A stretch of 64,000 nucleotides of DNA from Archangium violaceum. Its GTDB lineage: Bacteria > Myxococcota > Myxococcia > Myxococcales > Myxococcaceae. A program made the translations under genes and the position numbers. Each line of letters starts with the position of its first letter. The first letter of the stretch is position 1. The stretch is from the NCBI RefSeq assembly GCF_016859125.1, contig NZ_CP069338.1:8249501-8313500 (forward strand), given 5' to 3'. Shown here in pieces: positions 27,162 through 53,315 of the stretch. The notes under the pieces are model-generated. The model ran no database searches and was not told the DNA's origin. It saw only the letters and a list, made by a program, of their open reading frames with translations.

Positions 27162-27177
27162 CACACTCCGGCCTGAT

Positions 27178-27252
27178 GCGGGAATAGCTCAGCGGTAGAG
27201 CATCGCCTTGCCAAGGCGAGGGTCGAGGGTTCAAATCCCTTTTCCCGCTCCA
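27178..27252 (+). tRNA. tRNA-Gly (anticodon GCC), copy 2
   Basis: Base-for-base identical to copy 1, starting 16 bases after its CCA end (period 91 bases). Likely one transcript with copy 1, processed between the two genes, ended by the terminator that begins two bases after its CCA. Confidence 0.97.
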
Positions 27253-27442: not shown

Positions 27443-28222
27443 ATGTTCCGCAACCTCCGAGAACTCTACCAGTACCGGGGCCTCCTGCTGAGCCTGACGC
27501 AGCGCGAGCTCAAGGCGCGCTACCGCAATTCGGTACTCGGGTTCCTCTGGACGTTCCTCAACCCGATGCTGCACATGGCGGTCTACACGCTCCTGTTCTC
27601 CGTCTACATGCGGCAGAAGATGGAGGCCTACACGTACTTCGTGTTCGTGGGGCTGCTGCCGTGGATCTGGTTCTCCAGCTCCCTGGGCGCCGGGGCCAGT
27701 GCGATCAGTGATCGGCGGGATCTGCTCACCAAGGTGCGTTTCCCGGCCCAGGTGCTGCCGGCCGCCGTGGTGACCACCAACCTCATCAACTTCCTGCTGT
27801 CCCTGCCGTTGATGCTGGTGTTGGGGATGTTCTTCGGCCGCTTCCCCACCTGGCACATCGTGGCCTTCCCGGCGGTGATGGTGACCCAGCTGTGTGTGAC
27901 GCTTGCGCTCGTGTATCTGCTCTCCGCGCTCAACGTCACCTTCCGAGACCTGCAGCAGATCGTCGCCAACCTGATGACGCTCTGGTTCTTCGTCACCCCC
28001 ATCTTCTATCAGGCGACCACCATCCCCGAGCGTTTCCGCACGCTGGCCGTGCTGGCCAACCCCATGGCGGTGATGGTCACATCCTACCAGGCCATCTTCT
28101 ATGAGCAGCGCCTGCCGGATCCGGCGCCCCTGCTGATATGGATGACCATTGCCCTCGGTCTGCTCTGGGTTGCGTCCGAAATCTTCGAGCGTCGCCGCGA
28201 GGAGTTCGCGGAGTTCATCTGA
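27443..28222 (+). CDS. wzm: O-antigen/polysaccharide ABC exporter permease
   Basis: 259 residues with about six membrane helices and the ABC-2 polysaccharide exporter signature RELKARYRNSVLGFLWTFLN at the N-terminus and NLMTLWFFVTPIFY in the C-terminal half. Wzm pairs with Wzt to export undecaprenyl-linked O-antigen chains across the inner membrane before ligation to lipid A-core. Its stop overlaps the wzt start by one base. In M. xanthus wzm, wzt and wbgA are needed for O-antigen. Confidence 0.93.
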   Translation: MFRNLRELYQYRGLLLSLTQRELKARYRNSVLGFLWTFLNPMLHMAVYTLLFSVYMRQKMEAYTYFVFVGLLPWIWFSSSLGAGASAISDRRDLLTKVRFPAQVLPAAVVTTNLINFLLSLPLMLVLGMFFGRFPTWHIVAFPAVMVTQLCVTLALVYLLSALNVTFRDLQQIVANLMTLWFFVTPIFYQATTIPERFRTLAVLANPMAVMVTSYQAIFYEQRLPDPAPLLIWMTIALGLLWVASEIFERRREEFAEFI

Positions 28223-31860: not shown

Positions 31861-32854
31861 TCACCGCCGACGCAGCAGGCGCTTGCCCAGGAGGTAACCC
31901 GGGTAGATGCCCGGCAGGCGCCGTGCCAGACCGAGGAACCGGTGCCCCAACGAGTGGCGCAGGTGCTCCAACTCCTCGGTCGTGGCGGTGAGCTGCTGGC
32001 GCAACGCGTCCGCCTGGGCCCGCGCCTCACCGAGCTGCGCCTGGAACGCCTGCGACGTGGAGTCGAGTTGCTGGCGCAACGCGTCCGCCTGGGCCTCGAG
32101 CGCCTGCGTGGTGGCGGCGAGCCGTGCCCGGGCCTCCTCCCGCTCGGCCCGCACCGCGGCCAGCTCCGCCTCCATTCGCTTCAGCCGTGAGTCCTGCGCG
32201 GTGGCGAGTTTCTCCATCCGCAGTTGCCCCAGCCGCGCTCCCGCTGGCTCCGGCGCGAACCACTCCAGCAGGGGCGCCCCGCGATCGAGCAGCCGCTTCC
32301 AGCGCCCCAGCCGCCCCAGGAGTGCCTCCGGCGACCAGGCCTCCCAATCGGGTATCAGGTAGCGGAATACCAGGAAGTGGAGCAGCCGGCGCCGCAGCCG
32401 CTCCTCCTCCTCCGTGAGCGTGAAGGGCTGCTCGGCGAGGGCCTGGCGCAGCTGCTCCGGATCCGGCCCCAGGTCGCGCGTACACCCCCGGCCCGCATAG
32501 GGCGACTCGCCGAAGGTGTACACCACCTTGCCGCGGGCCAGCGCCTCCAGCCCCACCGAGGAGTTGATGGTGAGCACCGCGTCGGCCACTTCGAGCAGGG
32601 CCTCGGCGGGCAGCTCCTGCACGAGCTTCACGTGGCTCGCCAGCGTTCGTGGAGGGAGCGGGTGGTGCGGGTGGGGCCGGACCAGGACATGGTGCTGCTC
32701 CGGCGACGTCGCCGCGGTGACGAGCTCCAGCAACTCGCTCCCGCCCAGGCGGGACCACCGCAGCGTGTTCGAGTCACGCGGCACCTGGAGGAAGACGGCC
32801 AGCACCCGGCGGCCCGGGGTGAGCTCCAGGCGCCGGGCAATCTCCTCGCGGCTC
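31861..32854 (-). pseudogene. Interrupted glycosyltransferase gene, C-terminal part
   Basis: C-terminal ~331 codons of a gene split by an IS. The piece contains a capsule-synthesis-like glycosyltransferase end (LSREEIARRL, VLAVFLQVPRDS, HVLVRPHPHHPLPP, LTINSSVGLEALARGKVVYTFG: the E/GxEAL element that binds donor). A coiled coil follows (KRMEAELAAVRAEREEAR; QADALRQQLDSTSQ), then a basic end KRLLRRR. The 5' part is at 34594-35169. Together they would give about 520 residues, probably a cytoplasmic/peripheral glycosyltransferase of the O-antigen. This part has no start of its own that fits. Confidence 0.85.
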
Positions 32855-32874
32855 AAGAGCGCTCGATAAATCCC
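32855..32874 (+). repeat. Left terminal inverted repeat of the IS
   Basis: Twenty bases matching the right end at 18 positions; perfect core TCGATAAATCCC at 32863-32874. Confidence 0.8.
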
Positions 32875-32973
32875 AGGAAGTGAAAGCTGGGTGATCCAAA
32901 GGTGGGTGGGGAAGGCAAAGCCCCACCCCTGGGGTTCGGGTGCAAGAGGTACCATGTGAAGTAGGCAGGGGGA

Positions 32974-34377
32974 GTGAGCCAGAAGAAAGCGCGGGCAGCA
33001 GAGGGAAGAGTCCGGACGAAAGAGCCGGACAGGTCGCAAGGCTGGCTGTTCAAGCAGATGCCGGAGCAGTTGGTGGAGCCGGAGCACCCGGTGCGGGTAG
33101 TGGCGGCGGCGGTGGAGGCGTTGGACCTGAGAGGCTTTCTGGCCGGGGCCAAGGCGGTGGAGGGACATGCGGGACGCCCGGTGACAAGTCCCCGGTTGCT
33201 GTTGGCGCTGTGGGTGTACGGGATTCAGCAGGGAGTGGGGACGGCGACGGAGCTGGCGCGCCGGTGCGAGGAGGACAGGGCGTACCAGTGGCTGGCCGGT
33301 GGAGTGAAGGTGAGCCACGACAAGCTGAGCCAGTTCCGGGTGGAGCACCTGGAGGTGTTGCAGCAGGTGTTTACCGACGTGCTCTCGGTGCTGTTGCAGC
33401 AGGGGCTGGTGAGTTTGGAGCAGGTGGCGCAGGACGGCACGCGGGTGAGGGCCAGTGCCTCGGCGCCTTCGTTCCGGCGAGAGCAGTCGCTGCGGGAGTG
33501 CCAGGAGCAGGCCGAGCTGCACTTGCAAGCGGTGCTGGCGCAGAAGGACGACCCGGAGCTGACGCGTGGGCAGCAGGCGACACGAGAGGCCAAGGCGCGT
33601 GACTACCAGGCGCGGGTGGACGCGGCGCTGGAGGCGATAAAGCAACAGCAGGCCAGGAAGAAGGGGGCGGACAAGGAGAAGGTGCGCGCCTCCACCACGG
33701 ATGCGGATGCACGGGTGATGAAGATGGCCGATGGGGGTTTCCGACCCGCCTACAACCTGCAATTCGCGGTGGCTGGGGAGGCGCTGGGAGGGCCAAGAAC
33801 CATTGTGGGAGTGGAAGTCACCAACCAGGGCAGCGACATGGGCAGCGTGAGCCCCATGGTGGAGCAGATTGAGCAACGCACGGGCCAGGTGCCCGAGCGC
33901 GTGCTGGCCGATGGCGGCCATGCCACGTGCGCAGACGTGAAGCAGTGCGCGGCCAAGGGGGTTGAAGCGCTCATTTCGGTGCCCGAGCGCATGGCCCAGG
34001 CCGGGCAGCAGGGGGACCATTCCCCCGAGGTAGAGGCGTGGCGTGAGCGCATGCGCACCGACGAGGCCAAGGAGCAGTACAAGGCCCGCGCCGGCCTGGT
34101 GGAGAACGTCAACGCGCAGGTGAAGGGGCGCTATGGCCTGACGCAGGTGACGGTGCGGGGGCTGGAGAAGGTGAAGTGTGTCGCCTTGCTGGTGGCCCTG
34201 GCGCACAACCTGGCCGCACACGGCCAGCCTCTGGTGGATGCGCTGCTGGCGCGCCAGAGCGCGCTTGCCGAGCCGGCTCACCTCCTCGAGCTGGCTCCAG
34301 GCAACGCGGCCTCTCTCGGTGGCGGCATCAGTCCGGTGCCGGTGGACCAGGTCACCGCCTTGCCTGCTGGCTTCTGA
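32974..34377 (+). CDS. IS1182-family transposase
   Basis: 467 residues, apparently intact. Features: N-terminal RTKEPDRSQGWLFKQMPEQL, helical DUF772-like domain (PRLLLALWVYGIQQG, KVSHDKLSQFR), and the DDE residues in VAQDGTRVRASASA, LADGGHATCAD and GLVENVNAQVKGRYGL (Glu). Between the first and second Asp lies the long Lys-rich insertion typical of IS1182. GTG 32974 follows GCAGGGGGA. Complete frame, so the element may still be active. Confidence 0.92.
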   Translation: MSQKKARAAEGRVRTKEPDRSQGWLFKQMPEQLVEPEHPVRVVAAAVEALDLRGFLAGAKAVEGHAGRPVTSPRLLLALWVYGIQQGVGTATELARRCEEDRAYQWLAGGVKVSHDKLSQFRVEHLEVLQQVFTDVLSVLLQQGLVSLEQVAQDGTRVRASASAPSFRREQSLRECQEQAELHLQAVLAQKDDPELTRGQQATREAKARDYQARVDAALEAIKQQQARKKGADKEKVRASTTDADARVMKMADGGFRPAYNLQFAVAGEALGGPRTIVGVEVTNQGSDMGSVSPMVEQIEQRTGQVPERVLADGGHATCADVKQCAAKGVEALISVPERMAQAGQQGDHSPEVEAWRERMRTDEAKEQYKARAGLVENVNAQVKGRYGLTQVTVRGLEKVKCVALLVALAHNLAAHGQPLVDALLARQSALAEPAHLLELAPGNAASLGGGISPVPVDQVTALPAGF

Positions 34378-34573
34378 CGGCCAGCCCCCTGCCGCGTGTG
34401 GTGTGACCGGGCCTCTCAGGCTCCAACCAGGCGATGAGCCCCCGGGCTGTGTGGTTGAATCCCGCTCTCGCCTGCTTCCCACCTGTACAACCCCCCCCTC
34501 CAACTCCGCGCCTCGGGATGGGCGATTTCCTCCGCCCTCCCCTCCACTTCCTGATCGCGCTCTGCTCCCGCGA

Positions 34574-34593
34574 GGGATTTATCGACTGCTCTT
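34574..34593 (-). repeat. Right terminal inverted repeat of the IS
   Basis: Complement of the left repeat (18 of 20 bases), next to the 5' part of the interrupted glycosyltransferase gene. Confidence 0.8.
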
Positions 34594-35169
34594 CAGGGGC
34601 GAGGGCGCCATGGCCTCGGTGCGCAGCCACTCCAGCTCCAGCTCCTGCTCGAGGGTGAGCGGCTGCTCGCGCACCATGGGCCAGACGTCGGGTAGGGACG
34701 AGGCCCCGTTCACCCCCCGCGGATCGGCGAAGTACAGCACGGGGTTGGGTGGGCGCATCGGGCCGAGCTCCTGGTGCATCAGCACGATGCCTCGCTCCGC
34801 GGTCGCCGCACGCAGCGGCGCATTGACGGTCCAGGTCACCACCGCGTCCGGGCGCGTGCGCTCCAGCAGGGCCTCGATGAAGGGGTGCCAGATGGGCATG
34901 TCCGGGTCTGTCATCAGCCGCACCCACTCGGCGTCGAGCTGGGCTGGCTCCTCGGGCAGGGCCGGGCTCACGCCGAGGTCCGCTGGAGAGAGCAACCACG
35001 GCGCCGCATCCGGCCGGGCCGCCTTGATCGCATCGGAGACGGCGAACAGGGGCGAGGCCCCTCTCCGGGTGAGCTCCTGACTCAGGGCCAGCCAGCGGCC
35101 CACCACCCACTGGAAGTCGAGTGGACGCCCACGGACGGGGAAGGGTTCAACGAAGAAGAGGACTCGCAT
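34594..35169 (-). pseudogene. Interrupted glycosyltransferase gene, N-terminal part
   Basis: ATG 35169 begins MRVLFFVEPFPVRGRPLD, the start of a nucleotide-sugar glycosyltransferase-like N-domain. The frame runs about 192 codons (ELEWLRTEAMAPSPL) until the IS, where it meets a stop a few codons inside the element. The continuation is at 31861-32854. Loss of this glycosyltransferase may change the O-antigen of this strain. A truncated product could still be made but would lack the catalytic C-domain. Confidence 0.85.
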
Positions 35170-35786: not shown

Positions 35787-37413
35787 GGTGGGCTCCAGTG
35801 GCCCGCAGGGCCTGGACGAGCGCGGACACGGTGGGCTCCATCCGGCCGGGCTCGAAGGTGAGCAGCCGCTGGCCCAGGCGCTCGGCCAGGCCAGGCGTGA
35901 AGGCGGGGTGGGAAGCGTCACGGACGCCCCAGGCCTCGATGGACAGGTGGGGCAGGGTGTCCCGTGCGAGGAGCGAATCCGCGGGGAGGAAGACGGTGGG
36001 CGCGCGCGAGGTGCGCAGCGCGGTCTGCAGCGAGGAGGAGCCGGGCAGCTCCCGCGTCGCGTCACGGGGCAGGGGCTCGTCGGGGGTGAAGGCGCTCACC
36101 TCCAGCCCACCGGCGCGCATCGAGCGCGGTGCCAGTTCCACGGGCCGTGGCTGGGGATCCAACGTCAGCAGGCGGGCACCGGGGAGTTGCTCCGCGAGCC
36201 GCCGCGCGAGCTGGGACCCGGGCGCCTCCGGAAAAGCCACGAAGCCGGGGCACACGAGGTTGACTCCCGAGGCCTCGCTCCTGGCGGCCGGTGCGCGCGG
36301 GGTGCCTTCCAGGAAGGGCAGGAGCGCTTCGCGCACGGCCTCGGCTACGGCCTCCTGGCCGAGCTGCCCCACCCGCGCGCGCTGGGCGGCGATGATCTCA
36401 CGCCGCAGGGCCGGATCGCGCTCCAGCACCGCGAGCAGCCGCGCCATCTCCAGCGGCTCGTTCGTCAGCGAGGCGATTCCCGCACCGCCCATGGTTTCGG
36501 GCACCGCGGCGGCGCCATACGCCACCACGGGCACGCCGCGGTACATGGCCTCCAGCAGAGGCACGCCGAAGCCCTCGTGCCGACTCATGGAGAGGTACAC
36601 CGACGCCACCGAGAAGCACGCGGAGAGCTGCGCCGCGCTCACCCTCCCGAGGAACTGGACGCGCTCGGCCCCGAGCATCTCCTTCAATCCGTACAGGTAC
36701 GCGCCGTAGGGTGTTTCCCGGTTGAGGTAGCCGGCGACGATGAGGCGGCTCCGGGGTTGGTACAGCCGCTGCCAGGCGGTGAAGACGCGCAGCACGTCAT
36801 CGACACGCTTGCTCGGCACGGCGCGGCCCACGAAGAGGAGGTTGGCGCACCCGTCGTCCAGCTCGGCGCGCAGGACCGGATCCGGCGCCACGTCGAAGGT
36901 GCGCCAGTCCACCGCGAAGGGCAGCACCGACACCTGGGAGTAGCCGGCGGCCACCAGCTCCTCGGCGCTGAAGCGCGAGTAGGCCCACGCGCACTCCACT
37001 AGCGAGCGCATCGCGAGCAGCTCGTCCCGGGCCGCCTCGCAGGCGTGGGCTACCTTGTGCTCGAAGCCCTCGAAGAGCCGGGCGGGCGTCACGTTGTGGT
37101 ACACGAGTGCCTTGCGTCCCGGCGAGCGGGCGATCAGCGGCACGAGCCTCGATTCGAAGCTGTGGTGGATGATCAGCGCGCTCGTCTCGTCCGCTTCACG
37201 CGGAAGATCCTTCGCGGGCCTCACCAGCGAGCGGCACTCCTCATCCCACTGCTCCGCGTAGATCTCCGAGGCGTAGCCCCAGCCGCGCAGCAACTCGCGC
37301 AGGTAGCGCACCTGGTTGCCTACCGCATCACCCCAGGCCAATCGCGGTACCAGTTGATGAACCCCACGGGCTGTTGATGGGCTGGCCGCCCGTCTGCTTT
37401 TCGGGAGTTTCAC
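35776..37413 (-). CDS. Family 4 glycosyltransferase
   Basis: 545 residues. GT-B fold: N-domain HQLVPRLAWGDAVGNQVRYL with LIIHHSFESRLVP and LVYHNVTPA; C-domain LLFVGRAVPSKRVDDVLRVF, then the donor-binding E-x7-E element RHEGFGVPLLEAM, VPVVAYGAAAVPETMG. The C-terminal ~150 residues are an extra domain with strand/helix pattern but no clear match. GTG 37413 follows GGAAG. Probably transfers a sugar in the O-antigen; donor unknown. Divergent from rfbB, sharing a 116-bp intergenic region. Confidence 0.85.
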   Translation of the reverse strand: MKLPKSRRAASPSTARGVHQLVPRLAWGDAVGNQVRYLRELLRGWGYASEIYAEQWDEECRSLVRPAKDLPREADETSALIIHHSFESRLVPLIARSPGRKALVYHNVTPARLFEGFEHKVAHACEAARDELLAMRSLVECAWAYSRFSAEELVAAGYSQVSVLPFAVDWRTFDVAPDPVLRAELDDGCANLLFVGRAVPSKRVDDVLRVFTAWQRLYQPRSRLIVAGYLNRETPYGAYLYGLKEMLGAERVQFLGRVSAAQLSACFSVASVYLSMSRHEGFGVPLLEAMYRGVPVVAYGAAAVPETMGGAGIASLTNEPLEMARLLAVLERDPALRREIIAAQRARVGQLGQEAVAEAVREALLPFLEGTPRAPAARSEASGVNLVCPGFVAFPEAPGSQLARRLAEQLPGARLLTLDPQPRPVELAPRSMRAGGLEVSAFTPDEPLPRDATRELPGSSSLQTALRTSRAPTVFLPADSLLARDTLPHLSIEAWGVRDASHPAFTPGLAERLGQRLLTFEPGRMEPTVSALVQALRATGAHRAS

Positions 37414-37460
37414 GATACTTCCAGCGTCTACCTGTGAGGCGGGCAGCGCACAAGGCCGCC

Positions 37461-37489
37461 TTGACGTCCCCTGGCCCCTTCGCTACTCA
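37461..37489 (+). promoter_or_regulatory. Possible rfbBDAC promoter
   Basis: TTGACG (37461-37466), 17-base spacer, TACTCA (37484-37489), 40 bp before rfbB. Good -35, weak -10. Positioned in the divergent gap between the GT4 gene and rfbB. Confidence 0.35.
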
Positions 37490-37529
37490 GGCCCCTCGGT
37501 ATTCACATCTTTACTCTCCGAGTTCGTCG

Positions 37530-38549
37530 ATGAACGTCCTTGTCACAGGTGGCTGCGGTTTCATTGGGTCCAACCTCGTCAAGTACCTGCGCCGTGTGCG
37601 CCCGGACTGGACCGTCATCAACCTGGACAAGCTCACGTACGCGGGCAACCTGGAGAACCTCAAGGAGCTCGAGGGCGATCCCAAGCACGTCTTCGTGCGC
37701 GGTGACGTGGCCAACCGTGAGCTCGTCGAGCACCTGATGGGCGTGCACCGCATCGACGCCGTCATGCACCTGGCGGCCGAGAGCCACGTGGACCGCTCCA
37801 TCCTCGGCCCCGAGGCCTTCATCCAGGCCAACGTGCTGGGCACCCAGCAGCTGCTCGAGGCCAGCCGCGTGCGCGGCATCAAGCGCTTCCTCATGGTCTC
37901 CACCGACGAGGTGTACGGCTCGCTCGGCCCCACCGGCTACTTCACCGAGACCTCGCCGCTGCAGCCCTCCAGCCCCTACTCGGCTTCCAAGACGAGCTCG
38001 GATCTTCTCGCGCTGGCCTGGCACCACACCTTCGGCATGGACGTGGTGGTGACGCGCTGCTCGAACAACTACGGCCGCTACCAGTTCCCCGAGAAGCTGA
38101 TTCCGCTCATGGTGGTCAACGCCCTGCACGACAAGCCGCTGCCCGTCTACGGCGACGGCGCCAACGTGCGCGACTGGCTCCACGTGGAGGACCACTGCTC
38201 GGCGCTGCTCACCGCGCTGGAGAAGGGCAGGGCCGGTCAGGTCTACAACATCGGTGGCAACTCCGAGCGCAAGAACATCGAGATCGTCAAGGCGATCCTC
38301 GGCCTGCTGAACAAGCCCGAGTCCCTCATCAAGTACGTGAAGGATCGTCCGGGGCATGACCGGCGCTACGCCATCGACCCGACGAAGATCCGCACGGAGC
38401 TGGGTTGGACGCCCTCGCACACCTTCGAGCAGGGCCTCCAGGAGACGGTGCGCTGGTACGTGGACAATCCGGCCTGGTGGGAGCGCGTGATGAGCGGCGC
38501 GTACCGCCAATACTTCGACACGCAGTATCGCGCGCGCCTCAACGGCTGA
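37530..38549 (+). CDS. rfbB: dTDP-glucose 4,6-dehydratase
   Basis: Second step of dTDP-L-rhamnose synthesis. NAD-binding GGCGFIGSNLVKYL at the N-terminus, LAAESHVDRSI, the catalytic STDEVYGS and YSASK, and RCSNNYGRYQFPEKLIP plus YGDGANVRDWLHVEDH, all diagnostic of RmlB. 339 residues from ATG 37530, which fits the family; an upstream in-frame start would add unrelated residues. First gene of the rhamnose operon (rfbB-rfbD-rfbA-rfbC); the order differs from the common rfbBDAC only by nothing, i.e. the usual one. Confidence 0.96.
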   Translation: MNVLVTGGCGFIGSNLVKYLRRVRPDWTVINLDKLTYAGNLENLKELEGDPKHVFVRGDVANRELVEHLMGVHRIDAVMHLAAESHVDRSILGPEAFIQANVLGTQQLLEASRVRGIKRFLMVSTDEVYGSLGPTGYFTETSPLQPSSPYSASKTSSDLLALAWHHTFGMDVVVTRCSNNYGRYQFPEKLIPLMVVNALHDKPLPVYGDGANVRDWLHVEDHCSALLTALEKGRAGQVYNIGGNSERKNIEIVKAILGLLNKPESLIKYVKDRPGHDRRYAIDPTKIRTELGWTPSHTFEQGLQETVRWYVDNPAWWERVMSGAYRQYFDTQYRARLNG

Positions 38550-38564
38550 GCCAAGGGCCTCTCC

Positions 38565-39464
38565 ATGCGATTCCTCGTCACGGGTTCCAACGGGCTGGTG
38601 GGCAGCCGCGTGTGCGCGCTCCTCGAGAAGGGCGGGCACGAGGTGGTGGGTCTGGGCCGCGGTCCACGCCGCACGGTGGGCGCCTACCGCTATGTGGAGT
38701 GCGACCTCACGCGCGAGCAGGACGTGGGCTCCGCCATCGCGGCCGCGGCCCCCGAGGTCATCATCCATCCCGCCTCCATGACGGAGGTGGACGCCTGTGA
38801 GCGCGAGCCGGAGCAGGCGTACGCGGCCAACGTCACCGCCGTGGAGGCGGTGGCCCGGGGCGCGCGCAAGCTGGGCGCGCACCTGGTGCACGTGTCCACC
38901 GACTATGTCTTCGACGGTGAGCACGGGCCCTATGACGAGCAGGCGCTGCCCAACCCTCGCGGTGTGTACGCCCTCACCAAGCACATGGGGGAGCAGGCGG
39001 CGCGCACCTTCGTTCCCGGCTGCGCCATCGCGCGCACGGCCGTGGTGTTCGGCTGGCCGGCCGCGGGTCGTCCCAACTTCGGCGCCTGGATGGTGGGGGC
39101 CCTGGAGAAGGGGCAGCAGGTCCGTCTCTTCGAGGACCAGTTCGTCTCCGCGAGTCTCGCCGACAGCGTGGCCGAAATGCTGGTGGAGCTGGGTGAGCGC
39201 AAGCTGGGCGGCATCTGGAACACCTGCGGCGCGGACGTGGTGGATCGCGTCAGCTTCGGCCGCGCGCTCTGCGAGGTATTCGGCTTCGACCCGGGACTCA
39301 TCACGCCTACCCGCCTGGCGGACATGAAGCTCGCGAGCCCTCGCCCGCTGCGCAGCGGCCTGAAGGTGGACAAGGTTCGCTCGCAGCTCCGCTCGCAGCC
39401 GCTGCCGCTCGCCGAGGCGCTCGCCCGCTTTCACTCCGCCTGGAAGGTGGGGCGCAGTGCTTGA
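38565..39464 (+). CDS. rfbD: dTDP-4-dehydrorhamnose reductase
   Basis: Final NADPH-dependent step giving dTDP-L-rhamnose. Rossmann motif VTGSNGLVGSRV, HPASMTEVDACE, VHVSTDYVFDGEHGPY and the catalytic YALTKHMGE are typical of RmlD. 299 residues. Starts 15 bp after rfbB. Followed by a 99-bp gap with two inverted repeats before rfbA. Confidence 0.93.
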   Translation: MRFLVTGSNGLVGSRVCALLEKGGHEVVGLGRGPRRTVGAYRYVECDLTREQDVGSAIAAAAPEVIIHPASMTEVDACEREPEQAYAANVTAVEAVARGARKLGAHLVHVSTDYVFDGEHGPYDEQALPNPRGVYALTKHMGEQAARTFVPGCAIARTAVVFGWPAAGRPNFGAWMVGALEKGQQVRLFEDQFVSASLADSVAEMLVELGERKLGGIWNTCGADVVDRVSFGRALCEVFGFDPGLITPTRLADMKLASPRPLRSGLKVDKVRSQLRSQPLPLAEALARFHSAWKVGRSA

Positions 39465-39472
39465 ACCGGTTC

Positions 39473-39517
39473 CATCGGGCCGGATATAGCCCGATGACAC
39501 CCGTATCCGATGGTGTC
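39473..39517 (+). other. Two adjacent inverted repeats between rfbD and rfbA
   Basis: CATCGGGC (39473-39480) pairs with GCCCGATG (39489-39496); GACACC (39496-39501) pairs with GGTGTC (39512-39517). CGGATA (39481) could also pair with TATCCG (39504). No T-tract follows. Could be an operator, an mRNA stabiliser or an attenuator-like structure that changes the rfbA level. Confidence 0.5.
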
Positions 39518-39563
39518 CGAGGGCCAGGTCGTACCGCGTCCGGCGGACCCTGCGAGGAAAGTC

Positions 39564-40445
39564 ATGAAGGGAATCGTTCTCGCCGGTGGCTCCGGCACGC
39601 GGCTGTATCCACTCACGCGTGTGGTCAGCAAACAGCTGCTGCCCGTCTATGACAAGCCGATGATCTACTACCCGGTCACCACGCTGATGCTGGCGGGCAT
39701 CCGGGACATCCTGATCATCTCCACGCCCACGGACCTGCCGCGCTTCGAGGAACTGTTGGGCAGCGGCAGGCAGTGGGGCGTGAACTTCCAGTACGCGGTT
39801 CAGCCCAGCCCGGATGGGCTCGCCCAGGCCTTCATCATCGGCCGCGAATTCGTGGGCAGGGATCCGGTCTCCCTCATCCTCGGCGACAACATCTTCTACG
39901 GCCATGGCTTGAGTGAGCAGGTGAAGCGCGCGGCGGCGCGCGAGTCGGGCGCCACCGTGTTCGGCTACTACGTGAAGGATCCGGAGCGCTACGGCGTGGT
40001 GGAACTGGACGCGCAGGGCCGTGCGCTGAGCCTCGAGGAGAAGCCGGCGAAGCCCAAGTCCAACTACGCGGTGACGGGCCTGTACTTCTACGACAACCAG
40101 GTGCTGGACATCGCGAAGAACCTCAAGCCCTCCGCGCGTGGCGAGCTGGAGATCACCGACGTCAACATCGCCTATCTGCGCCAGAATCAGCTCCAGGTGG
40201 AGCTGATGGGGCGTGGCTACGCGTGGCTGGACACCGGTACCCACGAGTCGTTGATGGAGGCCTCCAACTTCATCCAGATCATCGAGCACCGACAGGGCCT
40301 CAAGGTGGCGTGCCCCGAGGAGATCGCCTTCCGCATGGGCTACATCTCCGCGGACCAGGTGGCGGAGCTGGCGCACCCCATGCGCAAGAACGAGTACGGG
40401 CGCTACCTGCTGGATCTCATCGAGAACAAGGGGGCCCGGACATGA
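39564..40445 (+). CDS. rfbA: Glucose-1-phosphate thymidylyltransferase
   Basis: Makes dTDP-glucose from dTTP and glucose 1-phosphate, the entry to the rhamnose pathway. Signature [20 protein letters not shown] at the start, [24 protein letters not shown] and [20 protein letters not shown]. 293 residues from ATG 39564 (GAGGAAA upstream); the longer frame from 39510 is not needed. Its stop overlaps rfbC by 4 bp. Confidence 0.96.
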
Positions 40446-40993
40446 ACATCATCCAGACGGAGTTGCCAGGGGTCCTCCTCCTCGAGCCCAAGCGCTTCGG
40501 CGACGATCGTGGCTTCTTCATGGAGATGTTCCATGCGAAGCGCTACGCGGAGGTCGGCATCTCCGGGCCCTTCGTGCAGGACAACTTCTCGCGCTCGGCG
40601 AAGGGGATCCTTCGCGGCCTGCACTTCCAGGAGCCGAACGCGCAGGGCAAGCTGGTTCAGGTGCTGGTGGGCGCCGTCTATGACGTGGCGGTGGACGTCC
40701 GCCGCGGCTCGCCGACCTTTGGCAGGTGGGTGGGCGTGGAGCTGAGCGCGGACAACCGGCGCCAGTTGTGGGTGCCGCCGGGGTTCGCGCACGGCTTCTG
40801 CGTCCTCTCCGAGAGCGCGGACTTCCATTACAAGTGCACGGACTTCTACTCGCCCACCACCGAGCGGGGCATCGCCTGGAACGATCCGGATCTGGGCATC
40901 CCCTGGCCGGTGACGTCGCCGCTGCTGTCGCCCAAGGACGCGGCCGCGCCGCGGCTGAAGGACGCGCCGGTGCTGCCCGTCTACGCGGGTTGA
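40442..40993 (+). CDS. rfbC: dTDP-4-dehydrorhamnose 3,5-epimerase
   Basis: Cupin enzyme that epimerises dTDP-4-keto-6-deoxyglucose. Catalytic His61 (ILRGLHFQ) with Tyr136 (CTDFYSP), and [18 protein letters not shown] and [15 protein letters not shown], are all in place. 183 residues, normal length. Ends the rhamnose operon, 6 bp from the convergent GT gene. Confidence 0.95.
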
Positions 40994-47390: not shown

Positions 47391-50300
47391 TCAGCCGTGG
47401 CTCCGCTCTTTCCTGCGCGCGGGCTCCATGGCGTCGCTGGCCCTGGGCTGGGCGTCGGCGTTCTGGATGGGCCCGCCATTGGGCATGATCAGCAGCTGCT
47501 TCACCGGGAGCTCCAGGACGTCCTCGAAGCGGAGCCCGCGCGCCTTGAATTCGGCCTCGGAAGGAATGTGGTACTTCACGCCGCCCTGGACCAGGAAGAC
47601 GCGGGCGCCACCGATGCCTCGTACGAGCGAGCCGTCCGGGAGTCCCGCGGGCTGACGCTTGCCGAAGTAGGCCTCGACGAACGCGTTCTCCACGTGGACG
47701 AACGACGACTCCCAGCTGAACTCCTTCACGTACGCGAGCCCCTCGGCCGAGAGCCGCTCGCGCCTGACGCGGTCGTCGAGGATGCCGATGACGGTGCGCG
47801 CGATGCCCAGGGGATCGGGCGGGGCGAGCACCACCGGCGAGTCGTCCCCGAACGTGCCACGCATGCTCTCCACGTCGACGTCCACGACCACCGCGCCACA
47901 CGCCATGGCCTCGATGGGCAGGAGCGAGTAGTTGGTGAGCGAGGTCAGCAGGGTGATGGCCGACGAGCTGTGCTGCTGGCGCAGCTGTTCCTCGTTCTGC
48001 AGTCCCAGGACCGTCGCCTCGAAGGGCACGTCGCGGTAGCCGAGGTCACCCGTGCCGAAGATGGCGATGCGCGTCTGCGGGCGCTGCTCCTTCACGTGGG
48101 CCAGCGCGGCCAGCAGCAGCTCGGTTCCCCGCCGCTCGGTGCTCGGACGCATGTAGACGAGCACCCGGTGCGGGTCGCGCTCGAACCGGGGGTCGGGGAA
48201 GTAGACGCCGGGCTCGTAGCCGAGGTGGAAGAAGCACCCCTGCATTCCATAGCGGCCGGTCATCATCTGGTGGAGCCAGGGGCTGGCCGAGATGCCGAAC
48301 AGGTTCATCCGGTAGGTGTTCTCCGCGAACACCCCGAGCGAGCCCTTCGGGTAGAAGTGCGGCTCGAAGTCCTGGATGAAGTACGCCTTGAAACGGGTGT
48401 TCTGGCGCTCGTACACGGCGTACGCCGTCGACCAGTGCGTCGCCAGGAGGACGTCGCTCTCCTCGACGTGCGCGGTCGTGTCGTGGATGTCCACGCCCGG
48501 CAGCGGCTGGTAGTGCCCCTCCATGAACTGGCGCAGCGCCTGCGGCGAGCCGTGCTCCGAACGGCCGTGCACATAGACGCGGTTCGTGACGCCCAGCGAC
48601 TGGAAGTAGCGCACGAAGCGCAGGATGCTCATGTGGCCACCGGAGCCCATCCCGATGTCCGGAATGATCCAACTCATCACCAGCGGGAGCGCGTCGAGCT
48701 GACGGTCCTTGCGGTGGAGGGCGTTGAAGTTCAGGCGCAGCTCGTCCTGGAGATCGACGTCGCCGACCACCTCCAACAAGGGGCGAAGCTCCTTGCCCGG
48801 GCCGCGTTTCTGGAGCGCGCCGCGCATCTCCTCCAGGACGGAGGGCATGCCCTTCGCCCGGGACTCGCGCCAGATGTTGCGGCCGAGATCGGCCAGCAGC
48901 CGTCCGCGGTGGATGGCGCCGCGCACGACGTCCTTCGCGCCATGGCGAAGCTGCTGCATGCCCGTCAGGTGGTTGACCGCGTAGAAGCCGGCGTTCCACC
49001 CGCTCGCGGTGGCCTGGCGCTTGAGGTCCTCGAGCATGGCCCTCGGGCGGCGCGTGCGGACGAGCTGGTCCAACTGCAGCTGGTGGTTCTGCTTCACGAA
49101 GACGCCATTGCCGAACGTCTCGTTGTGCTCGAGCTGGAAGTAGGCACTGGCCACCGGGAAGGGCGGTCTGGCCAGCAGGCCCGAGAGCGTCTGGGTGACG
49201 AACCGGGACAGGTCGCTCGAGAGCAGACCGCGCTCCTGCAGGAACGCCCAGACGGTGGGCGCCGAGGCGAGGACGCCCCGGTGGAAGTCCCGCGTGAACT
49301 GCTCGTGGACCCGGTTCTCGCCAGGGTCCGTCAGCCGCTCCGCCTGGACCCTGCCCTCCACCAGCCGATAGCCCGTGACGCTGCCGTTCTCCGAGTTGAA
49401 CAGCATCTCGATGGGCGCCTGCGGAGCGAGCAGGTGCTCACCGTGATCGCCCCGGTTGTCGTCGAACAGGAAGCCGGTCTTGGTGCAATTGGCCGGCTGC
49501 GGGTTGAGGAACCGGAAGAGGCTCAGGAACAGACCGCTCCAGTGCACCTGGGGAAGAACGCGCGCCAAGTTGTCCTGGATGGTGCCCCGCCACCCGATGT
49601 CCACCACCAGCACCCGCTTCGACTCCGGGGTGATGCCCTTCTGCTCCAGGTAGCGCAGCAGCAGATCGCGCCGCCCCTTCAGGGCCTGGAGGAGGGTGTT
49701 GCAGAACCGCTCGTTGGCGAGCAGCCCCCGGAAGCGCGCGTCCTCCCACGGCCGCTCGATGACCTCCTCCAGGGAGACGCCGGACTCCTTCACCAGCTCC
49801 GCGACCGCCTCCACCTGGACCCCCAGCGAGGTCAGGAAGGTGCGCAGCGAGTGGCGCGGGTACATCGTCCAGAGGCGGTTGAGCTCCGTGAGGTTGAGCT
49901 GCTGGATGGATGCGCCGAAGGTGGCGATACGGCTGACCTCGAGCACCTCGGCCGCCGGCAGCTCCAGCCCGGGATTCGAGGCGAGGATGCGCTCGTGGAT
50001 CTCCTTGAGGATCTCCCCCTCGCGCGTGAAGTAGTAGACGCGCTTCACGCCCTCGGCCAGCGCACGCTCCAGCGCGAACACGACGTAGAGCACGAGCACG
50101 GGTGAATACTTCACGCCCAGGTTGAAGTGGCGATCCGCTCGCGTGAGGGCGCCCGCCTTGTGGTGCGTGCGCAGCCGCTCCTTGAGCGCCCGCCAGTACG
50201 GGGTGAGGTCTCCCGCCATGCGCCGTTGGAACTGGTGCGCGAGCCGCTGCCGCTTGCGCTCCTCGTCCGGGTTGAAGAAGTGCACGGCCTTGATGCCATG

Positions 50301-50948
50301 GCTGCGCGGAACGGCGACGTCCGACTGCTCGTTGTCCCCGATGTGCTGGTGCCGTGGGGGCGTGACGCCGCTCTTCTCCTGGAAGCGGGTGAAGAGCCGC
50401 CCCGAGCGCTTGTTCACGCGCTCCGAGCACGAGGACATGCCTCCGTGAAGGGCCAGCTCCGGGTGTTTGGCCGCGATGAGCTCGTGGAGCTGCGCGCTGG
50501 GGACGTAGAAATCGCTGAGGAAGTACAGCTCGTGCCCGGACGCCACGCGCGACAACAGCCGGCCGATGCGCGCGTCCGGGTAGCTCACGTTGAACTCGGC
50601 GGCCCACTCCTGCGCGCAGACGTCCTTCACCATCGCGGCGTGCTGGGCCTCGGACACGTGCGGCGCGATGGTGCCCAACGTGAGCGCCCAGACCTCGCGC
50701 AGCTCGTACTCGTCGTCCAGCCCCTCGCGCTTGCGCTGGTCGCCGATCTCCACCTCGCTGGCGCGGCGCCGCTCGTGGATGGCTCGCTGGGTACGGTAGC
50801 CCGGAAGCAGCGTGGACCCGTACTTCAGGAGCACATACCGGGCCGCCGCGAGCTTCGTCTCATCGGGATGACAGCGTCGCCTGAGAAGCGTATCCCACAC
50901 ATCGACCGTGGTCACATTCACCGCCAGAGTCCCCTTCTGTCCTATCAT
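47391..50948 (-). CDS. HAD-type front end fused to WsaF-like glycosyltransferase
   Basis: 1185 residues. (1) HAD-like domain ~10-225: TVDVWDTLLRR (D16, D19), FLSDFYVP, KRSGRLF and HIGDNEQSDV. (2) ~240-480: a COG5610-like part with VYYFTREGEILKEIHERI and VVDIGWRGTIQDN. (3) ~500-740: helical linker. (4) ~750-1110: WsaF-like GT-B domain with SWIIPDIGMGSGGHMSILR, AYFIQDFEPHFYPKGS and TNYSLLPIEAMACGAVVVD. (5) C-terminus VFLVQGGVKYHIPSEAEF, a short module seen in surface-polysaccharide enzymes, then LIMPNGGPI. Likely builds the O-antigen. No signal peptide. Starts 22 bp downstream of the GT2 stop (minus strand). Confidence 0.82.
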   Translation of the reverse strand: MIGQKGTLAVNVTTVDVWDTLLRRRCHPDETKLAAARYVLLKYGSTLLPGYRTQRAIHERRRASEVEIGDQRKREGLDDEYELREVWALTLGTIAPHVSEAQHAAMVKDVCAQEWAAEFNVSYPDARIGRLLSRVASGHELYFLSDFYVPSAQLHELIAAKHPELALHGGMSSCSERVNKRSGRLFTRFQEKSGVTPPRHQHIGDNEQSDVAVPRSHGIKAVHFFNPDEERKRQRLAHQFQRRMAGDLTPYWRALKERLRTHHKAGALTRADRHFNLGVKYSPVLVLYVVFALERALAEGVKRVYYFTREGEILKEIHERILASNPGLELPAAEVLEVSRIATFGASIQQLNLTELNRLWTMYPRHSLRTFLTSLGVQVEAVAELVKESGVSLEEVIERPWEDARFRGLLANERFCNTLLQALKGRRDLLLRYLEQKGITPESKRVLVVDIGWRGTIQDNLARVLPQVHWSGLFLSLFRFLNPQPANCTKTGFLFDDNRGDHGEHLLAPQAPIEMLFNSENGSVTGYRLVEGRVQAERLTDPGENRVHEQFTRDFHRGVLASAPTVWAFLQERGLLSSDLSRFVTQTLSGLLARPPFPVASAYFQLEHNETFGNGVFVKQNHQLQLDQLVRTRRPRAMLEDLKRQATASGWNAGFYAVNHLTGMQQLRHGAKDVVRGAIHRGRLLADLGRNIWRESRAKGMPSVLEEMRGALQKRGPGKELRPLLEVVGDVDLQDELRLNFNALHRKDRQLDALPLVMSWIIPDIGMGSGGHMSILRFVRYFQSLGVTNRVYVHGRSEHGSPQALRQFMEGHYQPLPGVDIHDTTAHVEESDVLLATHWSTAYAVYERQNTRFKAYFIQDFEPHFYPKGSLGVFAENTYRMNLFGISASPWLHQMMTGRYGMQGCFFHLGYEPGVYFPDPRFERDPHRVLVYMRPSTERRGTELLLAALAHVKEQRPQTRIAIFGTGDLGYRDVPFEATVLGLQNEEQLRQQHSSSAITLLTSLTNYSLLPIEAMACGAVVVDVDVESMRGTFGDDSPVVLAPPDPLGIARTVIGILDDRVRRERLSAEGLAYVKEFSWESSFVHVENAFVEAYFGKRQPAGLPDGSLVRGIGGARVFLVQGGVKYHIPSEAEFKARGLRFEDVLELPVKQLLIMPNGGPIQNADAQPRASDAMEPARRKERSHG

Positions 50949-50970: not shown

Positions 50971-52113
50971 TCACGCCCTGGGCGCCAGGCGGGCCCTCAT
51001 CGCGTGCAGCAACGTCCGCATGAGGGAGGCGTTGCGCACTACAACCTCGGGCAGGTGCTTGGCCATCAGGCGTTTGCCGTCCTCGAGCAACCCCGTTTCG
51101 GGCTGCGGCCTGGCCTCCGCGGGAGCGTTCGCCTTGCGAACCAGCCCCTGCAGGTGCTCGGCCGACAACAGCAGATCGAGTGAGACCCCCGATCGATCGA
51201 GGAGATCCTTCAGCGCTCGCTCCAGTGAGCCGTCCGCGAGCGCGCTCTCCAACTCCGCGTCCGTCTGTCCGAGCGAGCGCAGGTACAGGGTGGGCAGCGG
51301 CAGGAAGCTCTCGTTGCGCAGCAGGAACGACATCACCTCGGACGCGGAGCACCCGTTCGGAACCCCGCGCGGCGCGAGTCCCTGCCGCCCCAGCGCCGAG
51401 GCGAAGACGAAGGCGTTTTCGCACACGTGCTTCCAGATGTTCGACTCGGAGATGGTGTTGGTGTCGTGCACGCGGTAGTGCAGCAGCGGCTCCTCCAGCC
51501 GGCGAACACCATGGCGCTCGGTGACCCGCAGGGCCCAGTCCCAGTCGTGCGCGTAGCGCAGCGAGCGGAAGCCCCCCAGCGTGTCGAACACCTCTCGCGA
51601 GAAGAAGAAGTTCGACGTGGTCATGGCGATGTTGCCCACCCAGAACCCGGCGGACGGCGGCCCGCCCGCGGCCTTCTGGCACACGCGCTCGTAGTAGCCG
51701 CGCGGACCTCCGGTGCAGGGCCGACCCGCCTCGTCGACGATCTCCACCGCGGAGATCCCGAAGAAGGGACCGTTCGCCTCGCGGGCCGCGGCGAGCATCC
51801 GCTCGAGGCGCGTGTCCGCATAGACGTCGTCGGAGTTCAGGATGGAGATGAACTGCCCGCGCGCGTGGCCGATGGCCTCGTTGAGGGTGTTGTGCGCACC
51901 CCGGTTCTCGCGGCTGAAGAGACGCACGCGCGGCTCGTTCGCGTAGCGCTCCTTCAGGTACTCGGGGGAGCCATCGCGCGAGCCGTCGTCCACGATGATG
52001 CACTCGACGTTCGCGTGCGTCTGCCGCAGGACGCCATCCACCGCCTCGCCAATGAACCGGCGATGGTTGTAGGACGGAATGACGACACTCACGAGTGCGG
52101 ATTGCTGATCCAT
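50971..52113 (-). CDS. Family 2 glycosyltransferase with C-terminal helical tail
   Basis: 380 residues. GT2 domain ~7-230: VVIPSYNHRRFIGEAVDGVL, VDDGSRDGSPEYL, the DxD-type element ILNSDDVYAD, and HDWDWALRVTERHG. After ~250 the protein is mainly helical with Leu-rich segments and ends in basic residues. ATG 52113 overlaps the end of the methyltransferase gene by 25 bp, so the two are coupled. Together with the 1185-residue enzyme this makes a three-gene minus-strand unit. Confidence 0.9.
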   Translation of the reverse strand: MDQQSALVSVVIPSYNHRRFIGEAVDGVLRQTHANVECIIVDDGSRDGSPEYLKERYANEPRVRLFSRENRGAHNTLNEAIGHARGQFISILNSDDVYADTRLERMLAAAREANGPFFGISAVEIVDEAGRPCTGGPRGYYERVCQKAAGGPPSAGFWVGNIAMTTSNFFFSREVFDTLGGFRSLRYAHDWDWALRVTERHGVRRLEEPLLHYRVHDTNTISESNIWKHVCENAFVFASALGRQGLAPRGVPNGCSASEVMSFLLRNESFLPLPTLYLRSLGQTDAELESALADGSLERALKDLLDRSGVSLDLLLSAEHLQGLVRKANAPAEARPQPETGLLEDGKRLMAKHLPEVVVRNASLMRTLLHAMRARLAPRA

Positions 52114-53315
52114 TGTCGTCCCTTCGAATAGAGGCGGGAGATGAGCGCTCGCGAGTAGTTGATGGGACGCAGCCGGGTGCGAAGCTGCTCGCATTCCTGG
52201 CGACACTGGTCGAGGCGCTCGTTCTGCCGGGCGATTTCCCGGGCGCGTTCCTCCGCCACGGCCTGCGCGGAGATGAGCTGCGCATCCAGCCGGGCCTTTT
52301 CTTCCTGGCGCTCGGCGATGAGCCGGGCGATTTCCCGGGCGCGCTCCTCCGCCACGGCCTGCGCGGAGATGAGCTGCGTATCCAGCCGGGCCATCTCTTC
52401 CTGGCGCTCGGCGATGAGCCGGGCGATTTCCCGGGCGCGCTCCTCCGCCACGGCCTGCGCGGAGATGAGCTGCGTATCCAGCCGGGCCTTCTCTTCCCGG
52501 CGCTCGGCGATGAGCCGGGCGATTTCCTGGGCGCGCTCCTCCGCCACGGCCTGCGCGGACACGAGCTGCTGCGTCACGTGGTCCTGCATGGACGTGAGGA
52601 TGCTCGCGTCGAAGGTGACGCTCTCCGGCAGGCGCACGTCGGAGCCCGGCTCGAGCGAGCACACGGCGATGAGGTACTCGTACGAGAGCGGGCGTTCCGC
52701 GCTCACGAACTCACCCCGGTCATCCGTCGTCACGGAGTACGAGGCCAGGGGCTTGTCACTCGTGACGAGGCTGAAGTACCCGGCCCGCTGCTGGGCGATG
52801 TGGACCTGGGGAAAGCGGGCCTCGAGCAGTTGGGTGAACTGCGTCCGCTCGAGCTCGTGGAGGTGGTAGGGGTTCGCGTAGTCGCGCGCCGTGCTGTAGA
52901 CGGCCTTGTCCGGGGTGGAGAGGATCAGCTGTCCGCCCTTGCGCAGCACCCGATGCACTTCCTGCAGGAAACGCTGTTGCTCCGCCTCCCCGACGTGCTC
53001 GAGCGTCTCGAACGAGATGACGACGTCCACGCTCGCATCGGCCAGGGGCAGTGCCGTCACGGAGCCCTCGAGGAACTCGAGGTTGGGCCGCACGTAACGG
53101 GAACGGGCGTGCTCGAGCGCCTCCCGGCTCACATCCACGCCCACGACCTTATCCGCGAAGCGGGCAAGGTACGCGCTGCCGTAGCCCTCACCCGAGGCGA
53201 CATCGACCACGGTCCTACCCCGAACGAGCTCTGCGACCAGGAAGTAGCGGTGCCAGTGCTCCAGCGCGATCTGGAGGCCCATGTTGGGTAGGAATCTCTC
53301 GCCGGTCGGATCCAT
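52089..53315 (-). CDS. SAM methyltransferase with four-repeat coiled-coil tail
   Basis: 408 residues. Class I methyltransferase at ~30-200: VVDVASGEGYGSAYLA (SAM motif I), VVGVDVSREALEHAR, VISFETLEHVGE and VLRKGGQLILSTPD. Residues ~255-375 are four copies of a 32-residue helical repeat, typical unit AQAVAEERAREIARLIAERQ then EEKARLDTQLIS. The tail (LRPINYSRALISRLYSKGRQ) is basic and could attach to membrane. This plan, methyltransferase then coiled coil then amphipathic end, resembles the E. coli O9a chain terminator WbdD, though there is no kinase domain. It starts the minus-strand unit (tgt is divergent). Confidence 0.87.
   Translation of the reverse strand: MDPTGERFLPNMGLQIALEHWHRYFLVAELVRGRTVVDVASGEGYGSAYLARFADKVVGVDVSREALEHARSRYVRPNLEFLEGSVTALPLADASVDVVISFETLEHVGEAEQQRFLQEVHRVLRKGGQLILSTPDKAVYSTARDYANPYHLHELERTQFTQLLEARFPQVHIAQQRAGYFSLVTSDKPLASYSVTTDDRGEFVSAERPLSYEYLIAVCSLEPGSDVRLPESVTFDASILTSMQDHVTQQLVSAQAVAEERAQEIARLIAERREEKARLDTQLISAQAVAEERAREIARLIAERQEEMARLDTQLISAQAVAEERAREIARLIAERQEEKARLDAQLISAQAVAEERAREIARQNERLDQCRQECEQLRTRLRPINYSRALISRLYSKGRQWISNPHS
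52227..52566 (-). repeat. Four tandem 96-bp repeats in the methyltransferase gene
   Basis: The string CTCCGCCACGGCCTGCGCGG begins at 52251, 52347, 52443 and 52539, i.e. a period of exactly 96 bp (32 codons, in frame). The middle copies differ by only a few bases. Outer copies fade: the first (52227-52250) and last (after ~52560) are partial. Equal-length units keep the reading frame, so copy-number change would give longer or shorter coiled coils. Confidence 0.93.

What the first reader, a model, noticed from the sequence alone, without database searches (positions are those of the whole stretch)
52089..53315. Candidate O-antigen chain terminator and molecular ruler: methyltransferase plus exact 32-residue coiled-coil repeats
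The methyltransferase ends in four near-identical 32-residue repeats encoded by 96-bp DNA units, with an amphipathic basic tail. E. coli WbdD stops O9a chains by methylation/phosphorylation, and its coiled coil sets chain length. This locus has Wzm and a Wzt with a glycan-binding C-domain, which in known systems recognises a terminated chain. Inference: this protein caps the chain and its repeat number sets chain length.
Basis: partly seen in the sequence, partly recalled or inferred. Interest (0 to 1): 0.8.

Follow-up and report, generated by a model that had tools for sequence, protein, structure and literature searches.

The report
Repeat-built coiled-coil glycan-chain terminator
A soil bacterium carries what looks like an enzyme that stops surface-sugar chains growing by capping them with a methyl group, held on a rod made of repeated DNA units whose number could set the chain length; it belongs to a probably imported three-gene set and lies near a second, broken terminator.

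Summary
In detail: a 408-aa methyltransferase (MT) ends in 3.6 copies of a 96-bp unit (three full, one half; 96% match). The model shows one 144-residue helix, ~21 nm.

Context supports the interpretation. The gene heads a three-gene set: MT-coiled coil, GT2, and a ribofuranosyltransferase (like PDB 7shg) fused to a WsaF-type rhamnosyltransferase. Rhizobium sp. RU33A has the same set in the same order; its rod keeps the 32-residue period but is about twice as long. A myxobacterial relative fuses MT-coiled coil-GT2-WsaF in one protein. Wzm and Wzt occur in the held stretch of 7 of 14 homologous loci. This resembles known polymerase-terminators (Klebsiella O7, E. coli O101/O162 MT, WsaE, WbdD) without a kinase.

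Against a simple link to the local Wzt: it lies 22.6 kb away, a sister species keeps Wzm/Wzt but lacks the cassette, and a GT99-type (beta-Kdo) coiled-coil gene beside Wzt is interrupted by an IS element. Capping and ruler action are inferred.

Verdict: probably a glycan-chain terminator subunit; new variant of a known kind. Boldest reading: an imported methyl-capping terminator replaced a broken Kdo-capping one.

The parts
52089..53315 (-). Methyltransferase-coiled-coil protein (408 aa), candidate chain terminator
   Evidence: ORF; Pfam; AlphaFold2 model
52644..53315 (-). Class I SAM methyltransferase domain, about residues 1-224
   Evidence: Pfam; PDB structural neighbours Z 17.9-20.1 in the 50 rows shown
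52173..52604 (-). Continuous predicted helix, residues 238-381 (~214 A): the rod
   Evidence: model (residues 237-252 have pLDDT under 50); length computed
52226..52569 (-). 96-bp tandem repeat array, 3.6 copies; one unit = 32 residues, which equals 3 heptads + 1 hendecad, ~47.5 A
52119..52169 (-). Short basic helix after the rod, residues 383-399
   Evidence: model; charge +5, moment not exceptional
50971..52113 (-). GT2 glycosyltransferase (380 aa); its start overlaps the MT gene's end by 25 bp
   Evidence: Pfam (on a longer ORF); 53% identity to the Rhizobium GT2
47391..50948 (-). Ribofuranosyltransferase (HAD phosphatase + PRPP-type transferase) fused to a WsaF-type rhamnosyltransferase, 1185 aa
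   Evidence: PDB 7shg E 1.1e-29 residues 15-574, Bcs3, WsaF 2x0e E 3.8e-8 residues 814-1084; Pfam WsaF_N/C
27443..28222 (+). Wzm permease (ABC2_membrane); the only match of this protein in the genome at E<=0.001
   Evidence: Pfam
28138..29526 (+). Wzt ATPase with Wzt_C glycan-binding domain (about 29098-29460)
   Evidence: Pfam
34579..35169 (-). N-terminal piece of an interrupted GT99 (beta-Kdo transferase type) gene
   Evidence: Pfam PF21912 E 6.9e-8, 33.3 bits against cut-off 27
31864..32855 (-). C-terminal piece of what is probably the same interrupted gene: Capsule_synth/GT99-like part + coiled coil + basic tail
   Evidence: searched as 31864-32973: Pfam PF05159 E 1.7e-11; PDB 5fa0/8cse E ~3e-4 and KpsC E ~2e-3; coiled coil at residues 251-344; boundary to the IS estimated
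32856..34592 (+). IS element with DDE transposase (32974-34377) lying between those two pieces; imperfect terminal inverted repeats
   Evidence: Pfam; inverted repeats 32844-32874/34574-34604, 84%; exact ends estimated
37374..40993 (+). dTDP-rhamnose genes (rmlB, rmlD by Pfam; rmlA, rmlC named from recalled motifs)
   Evidence: conserved in G002 and G005

Best explanation
The protein is the terminator subunit of a polymerase-terminator complex encoded by a three-gene cassette that was probably acquired horizontally. The GT2 and the ribofuranosyl/rhamnosyl fusion elongate a ribofuranose- and rhamnose-containing chain at the inner membrane; the coiled coil oligomerises and holds the methyltransferase about 20 nm away; when the growing chain reaches it, O-methylation of the end sugar stops growth. 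Each 96-bp unit adds one register-neutral 32-residue block (~4.75 nm), so copy number sets rod length and, by the WbdD precedent, modal chain length. Shown here: sequence architecture, homologies, cassette conservation in one other genome, repeat period and rod-length difference. Inferred: methyl capping, the end sugar, oligomerisation, ruler action, and export by the genome's single Wzm/Wzt.
For: Methyltransferase plus 144-residue helix. Same cassette and order in Rhizobium L017, 43-53% identity; MT domains pair 100/100 in a 14-row tree. Ribofuranosyltransferase and WsaF homology. Fused MT-CC-GT2-WsaF protein in L023, in a stretch whose Wzm/Wzt are 64%/54% identical to the window's. Wzm and Wzt both found in 7 of 14 homologous loci. 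The Rhizobium rod keeps lag 32 (0.89 against a 99% shuffle maximum of -0.03), with 5 individually significant units, about 8 by register, against ~4. One Wzm match in the genome. Precedents: Klebsiella O7 ORF6/ORF7 (PMC11231755, passages and Discussion part 1); E. coli O101/O162 MT with coiled coil, intact gene required for O-methylation (PMC13168486, passages); WsaE methyl cap (PMC2943079, passages); WbdD rod length sets chain length (PMC5082667, passages); a Wzt binding domain that recognises a methyl-only cap in Aquifex (PMC9445017, passages); Wzm/Wzt needed for O-antigen in Myxococcus xanthus (PMC7484181, passages).
Against: No functional data. The cassette is 22.6 kb from Wzm/Wzt on the other strand; sister G002 keeps Wzm/Wzt/rml without it. 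The GT99-type coiled-coil gene beside Wzt suggests that the transporter's native cap may be Kdo. 7 of 14 homologous loci show no Wzm/Wzt in the held stretch (one of them only 5 kb long). One of 14 proteins scored (L032, which does lie beside Wzm/Wzt) shows no coiled coil. WsaE methylated independently of chain length in vitro. Tail amphipathicity is not exceptional. Two of nine core positions of the repeat are R and K. The first residues of the modelled helix are of low confidence.
Confidence: 0.6

Rival explanations
1. The methyltransferase decorates internal or side residues of a glycan and does not stop growth; the coiled coil only gathers the glycosyltransferases.
For: MT matches are to general class I families; none of the 25 of 43 NCBIfam matches shown reaches its cut-off. 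The 50 structural neighbours shown are diverse methyltransferases with Z 17.9-20.1. One of 14 proteins scored lacks a coiled coil.
Against: A terminator role is established or proposed for proteins with the same architecture; a long rod that varies in length is not needed for mere recruitment (inference).
Confidence: 0.2
2. The cassette makes a separate polymer, or is a recent arrival with little effect; the Wzm/Wzt O-antigen ended in Kdo set by the GT99 coiled-coil protein, or is ended by another enzyme now that this gene is broken.
For: MT gene absent in 5 of 5 other genomes of the genus at E<=1e-30 while G002 keeps Wzm/Wzt; GT99-CC pieces begin 2.3 kb from Wzt.
Against: Only one Wzm match in the genome; the GT99 gene is interrupted; the cassette's three reading frames are open and tightly packed; Wzt_C differs from G002 more (76%) than the ATPase part (95.7%), though binding domains may simply evolve faster.
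Confidence: 0.15
3. The repeat number has no function: slippage in a tolerant helical linker.
For: Units 1-3 are nearly identical at DNA level, as expected of recent duplication; helical linkers tolerate such changes (general knowledge). DNA tandem repeats lie in the coiled coil in only 3 of 15 regions scanned.
Against: Unit sizes 32 (21+11) and, in Lichenihabitans, 46 (35+11) are those that keep a coiled-coil register (arithmetic mine; core positions printed for the 32 unit only; sizes). The 32-residue period is shared with Rhizobium, where no DNA tandem repeat is found, so the unit is probably old.
Confidence: 0.15

Closest known systems
Klebsiella pneumoniae O7 ORF6/ORF7 polymerase-terminator (PMC11231755; passages and Discussion part 1 seen)
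   Same: N-terminal methyltransferase, coiled coil, GT2 modules, ribofuranosyltransferase, dTDP-rhamnose genes, Wzm/Wzt
   Different: The O7 terminator also has a kinase-type domain and carries its GTs in one polypeptide; here no kinase, three genes, ribofuranosyltransferase fused to a WsaF-type GT, rod made of near-identical repeats
E. coli O101/O162 MT (PMC13168486; passages seen)
   Same: Methyltransferase with C-terminal coiled coil and no kinase mentioned; intact gene required for O-methylation; ruler role proposed there
   Different: Polymer and GTs differ; sequence homology to the window protein not tested here
WsaE/WsaF of Geobacillus (PMC2943079; passages seen)
   Same: Methyltransferase with rhamnosyltransferases, 2-O-methyl cap, WsaF homologue, rml genes, Wzm/Wzt
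   Different: WsaE is one trifunctional protein; whether it has a coiled coil was not examined here; its methylation was length-independent in vitro
WbdD of E. coli O9a/O8 (PMC5082667 and PMC3482155; passages seen)
   Same: N-terminal methyltransferase, long C-terminal coiled coil of about 20 nm, polymerase encoded apart
   Different: O9a WbdD has a kinase; no sequence match found; its rod is not described as tandem repeats in the passages seen
WbbB, GT99 (PMC9587256; start of abstract in a search listing)
   Same: The interrupted neighbour gene matches the GT99 family and has a coiled coil
   Different: That gene is broken here, and the methyltransferase is a different terminator type

Membership tests
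[quoted passage not shown]
   Pfam; helix 238-381; coiled-coil score residues 256-383
Coiled-coil polymerase-terminator systems (general) | Encoded with polymerising glycosyltransferases | tested here: met
   GT2 and Ribf/WsaF genes directly downstream, same set in Rhizobium; that they polymerise is inferred
Coiled-coil polymerase-terminator systems (general) | Wzm/Wzt with a glycan-binding domain that takes the capped chain | tested here: inconclusive
   One Wzm match in the genome and a Wzt with Wzt_C, but 22.6 kb away; specificity unknown; 7 of 14 homologous loci have Wzm/Wzt
Coiled-coil polymerase-terminator systems (general) | Loss of terminator or change of rod length alters chain length | not testable with these tools
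   Needs mutants and gels
WbdD (E. coli O9a type) | Kinase domain between methyltransferase and coiled coil | tested here: not met
   Only methyltransferase families in Pfam at E<=0.001; about 17 residues between the last MT strand and the rod in the model
WbdD (E. coli O9a type) | Sequence or structural homology of the MT domain to WbdD | tested here: inconclusive
   No entry named WbdD in the 60 of 61 phmmer matches shown nor in the 50 rows shown by each structural search; absence from a cut list does not exclude it
WbdD (E. coli O9a type) | C-terminal membrane helix and polymerase-binding site | tested here: inconclusive
   Basic helix 383-399, amphipathicity not above shuffles
Klebsiella O7 ORF6/ORF7 type | Ribofuranosyltransferase partner | tested here: met
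   By homology: 7shg E 1.1e-29, Bcs3 E 7.6e-11
Klebsiella O7 ORF6/ORF7 type | Methyltransferase-kinase-CC-GT2-GT2 in one protein | tested here: not met
   No kinase match; GTs in separate genes
WsaE type | One trifunctional MT-GT-GT polypeptide | tested here: not met
   Split genes here; a fused MT-CC-GT2-WsaF form exists in L023

The most novel reading that the evidence does not exclude
Terminator swap: in this lineage a beta-Kdo-capping GT99 coiled-coil terminator beside Wzm/Wzt was knocked out by an IS element, and an imported methyl-capping polymerase-terminator cassette took over O-antigen termination through the same transporter; the new terminator's rod is a DNA-repeat-built ruler whose length can be reset by one register-neutral 96-bp unit at a time.
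Probability: 0.22. Interest if true: 0.78.

Novelty: new variant of a known kind. Interest (0 to 1): 0.57.

Why it matters
How bacteria set and evolve surface-glycan length becomes testable here: a ruler made of clean, register-neutral DNA repeats can change by unit steps through ordinary repeat recombination, with predicted steps of ~4.75 nm. The cassette also predicts a concrete glycan (ribofuranose and rhamnose, methyl-ended) in a myxobacterium, and the broken GT99-type terminator beside Wzt offers a natural case for asking how a transporter's cap specificity follows a change of terminator.

Tried and rejected
WbdD homology by sequence: no entry named WbdD among the 60 of 61 phmmer matches shown at E<=0.01. 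The structural lists show 50 rows each, diverse methyltransferases (Z 17.9-20.1), so no family can be read from them. CgnL (7pd7, Z 19.2), reported as the nearest relative of the Klebsiella O7 MT domain, is tied with many others and proves nothing.

More copies of the cassette: 397 genomes of the order of G195 gave only G195 itself, for the MT protein at E<=1e-50 and for the fusion at E<=1e-100; strict cut-offs, so more distant cassettes may exist. Plasmids: MT matches in 11 records, of which I opened 4; fusion matches in 55 records, 25 listed, none covering 80% of the query; GT2 matches in 8. I saw no whole cassette there. The one genome-contig scan gave two loci.

Cassette site in the genus: the tgt to ABC-F interval of G002 and G005 holds no match to a cassette gene; in G001 and G003 ABC-F was not within the 20 kb fetched and in G004 only 12 kb of contig lay on that side, so 2 of 5 are informative on the site.

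Rhizobium Capsule_synth neighbour as a relative of the interrupted gene: no match in the window at E<=1e-4. Interrupted-gene pieces in the loci held at that time: none at E<=1e-4. Wzt C-domain against PDB sequences: no hit at E<=1, so no ligand can be inferred. The ORF 31861-34503 listed first is partly antisense to the transposase and is not a gene as such.

It gave one segment inside an MT domain (L024, 104-124), which I disregarded. The tree and the score used 14 proteins; L030 (G078) was left out of both.

Repeat-unit counting in L017: 5 units pass the 95% shuffle maximum; about three more are only in register, and one stretch (about 282-316) is irregular.

Full report
What is there. The window lies in a 12.68-Mb single-contig genome. 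ORF 52089-53315 (-) encodes 408 residues: a class I methyltransferase followed by a helix predicted to run from 238 to 381 without a break, then a short basic helix 383-399 (mean pLDDT 75, three sequences in the alignment, residues 237-252 under 50). The DNA under the helix holds 3.6 copies of a 96-bp unit at 96% match. Three units differ from each other by 2-7 nt; the fourth shares only its residues 2-19. Thirty-two residues equal three heptads plus one hendecad; with steps 3,4,4 and then 3,4 three times the core positions read L A A A I I R K L, so seven of nine are apolar and adding a unit leaves the register intact. At 1.485 A per residue (recalled value) the rod is about 214 A and a unit 47.5 A. 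WbdD's capping domains are stated to stand about 200 A from the polymerase (PMC5082667, passages).

The gene set. The MT gene overlaps by 25 bp a GT2 gene (50971-52113), which is followed after 22 bp by a 1185-aa gene (47391-50948). Residues 15-574 of the latter match the solved ribofuranosyltransferase 7shg (E 1.1e-29) and in part Bcs3, the Hib capsule polymerase with HAD phosphatase and ribofuranosyltransferase; residues 814-1084 match the rhamnosyltransferase WsaF (PMC10299916, passages). Pfam gives WsaF_N and WsaF_C. dTDP-rhamnose genes lie at 37374-40993. The predicted polymer therefore contains ribofuranose and probably rhamnose (inference).

Relatives. Rhizobium sp. RU33A (L017) has the same three genes in the same order; MT-CC 43%, GT2 53%, fusion 51% identical. 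In a tree of 14 MT domains the two pair with 100/100 support, although one is an alphaproteobacterium; hence horizontal transfer is likely. Within the phylum 9 of 195 genomes, the own one included, match at E<=1e-25; I took the regions of all eight others. In the genus 0 of 5 others match at E<=1e-30; the GT2 has no match in 95 other genomes of the family at E<=1e-40, and the fusion matches in the genus only through its WsaF part. Of the 14 proteins compared, 8 are 792 aa or longer; 5 of those 8 were run in Pfam and all 5 carry glycosyltransferase domains. L023 (G011) reads MT - coiled coil - GT2 - WsaF in 1351 aa: the order of our operon in one polypeptide. Its GT2 and WsaF parts are distant from ours (25% identity, E 3e-5 and 3e-8).

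Transporter. Of 14 homologous loci held (L017, L018, L023-L034; L030 only 5 kb), 7 have both Wzm and Wzt matches in the stretch, up to about 13 kb from the MT: L018, L023, L024, L026, L027, L029, L032. Three genomes whose stretch lacked them have a Wzm match elsewhere (G195, G162, G080; 3 of 3 searched). In the own genome Wzm has one match, the window's. Wzt_C over the cut-off occurs at two places, the window's Wzt and a 744-aa frame at 5239199 that I did not study.

Rod length. The Rhizobium rod keeps a 32-residue period at protein level (lag 32 scores 0.89, 99% shuffle maximum -0.03), with no DNA tandem repeat found. Five units are individually significant and about eight are in register, against about four here. 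Of 15 homologous regions scanned, DNA tandem repeats fall in the coiled coil in three: the window, Lichenihabitans (138 bp = 46 residues, 2.2 copies, 98%) and Methylovirgula (21 bp, 2.8 copies, 86%); two others have short repeats outside it. A coiled-coil segment of at least 21 residues beyond the MT domain was scored in 13 of 14 proteins; the Shinella protein L032 has none.

Wzm/Wzt are 22.6 kb away on the other strand. Sister genome G002 has Wzm (92%), Wzt (87%), both GTs beside them, GT4, rml genes, the 734-aa GT (67%), ABC-F and tgt, but no cassette. Between the two species Wzt_C is 76% identical and the ATPase part 95.7%, which may mean changed specificity or only faster evolution. Beginning 2.3 kb from Wzt lies an interrupted gene: its N-terminal piece (34579-35169) matches the GT99 N-terminal family; its C-terminal piece (31864 to about 32855) matches Capsule_synth, the structures 5fa0/8cse (named 'N-acetyl glucosaminyl transferase' in the table; their identity as WbbB is recalled) and KpsC, and ends in a coiled coil and a basic tail. 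Between the pieces sits an IS with a DDE transposase and imperfect inverted repeats. That the pieces are one gene is inferred from order, strand and family. WbbB caps O-antigen with beta-Kdo (PMC9587256, start of abstract; PMC11231755, passages). So this locus once had a GT99-type coiled-coil gene, probably a Kdo terminator, that is now broken. Its pieces had no match in the other loci held, so whether relatives keep an intact copy is unknown.

Reading. Best supported: the protein is the capping and ruler subunit of a methyl-ended ribofuranose/rhamnose glycan system (0.6). In E. coli O101/O162 an MT with coiled coil is required for O-methylation and a ruler role was proposed (PMC13168486, passages). 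A Wzt domain can recognise a methyl-only cap (PMC9445017, passages). A caution: WsaE methylation was length-independent in vitro. The bold reading, a terminator swap onto the same transporter, is not excluded.

Novelty in print. The coiled-coil ruler is established. My two searches for tandem repeats or duplication in such rulers (15 of 20 papers listed, 12 of 117 listed; titles and abstract starts only) showed no paper on it; the library lacks most subscription papers, and the original ruler paper was not held.

Noticed in passing
window 31864-35169: A GT99-type, coiled-coil, probably Kdo-capping terminator gene beside Wzm/Wzt is split by an IS element with a DDE transposase.
   Followed up: partly
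window 27087-27252: Two tRNA-Gly (gcc) genes as a 91-bp tandem pair, 100% match, just before Wzm.
   Followed up: no
own genome C1:5238863-5239537 (L058, L062): A 744-aa frame with two Wzt_C-like stretches, one over the cut-off, away from the O-antigen locus.
   Followed up: no
L049 17581-18225; window about 35277-36065: Small protein conserved in the O-antigen locus of three species (84% and 57% identity to the window frame); by look it has a basic, helix-rich end; function unknown.
   Followed up: no
L031 9917-12961 (Lichenihabitans plasmid): MT-coiled-coil-GT2 protein whose rod holds a 138-bp tandem repeat at 98% match, unit of 46 residues.
   Followed up: partly
L017 2-9603 and L051: In Rhizobium sp. 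RU33A the cassette lies near a large polyketide-synthase-like gene (named by look, no family search run), an export protein (Poly_export/SLBB), a Sulfatase-family gene and a Capsule_synth gene.
   Followed up: no
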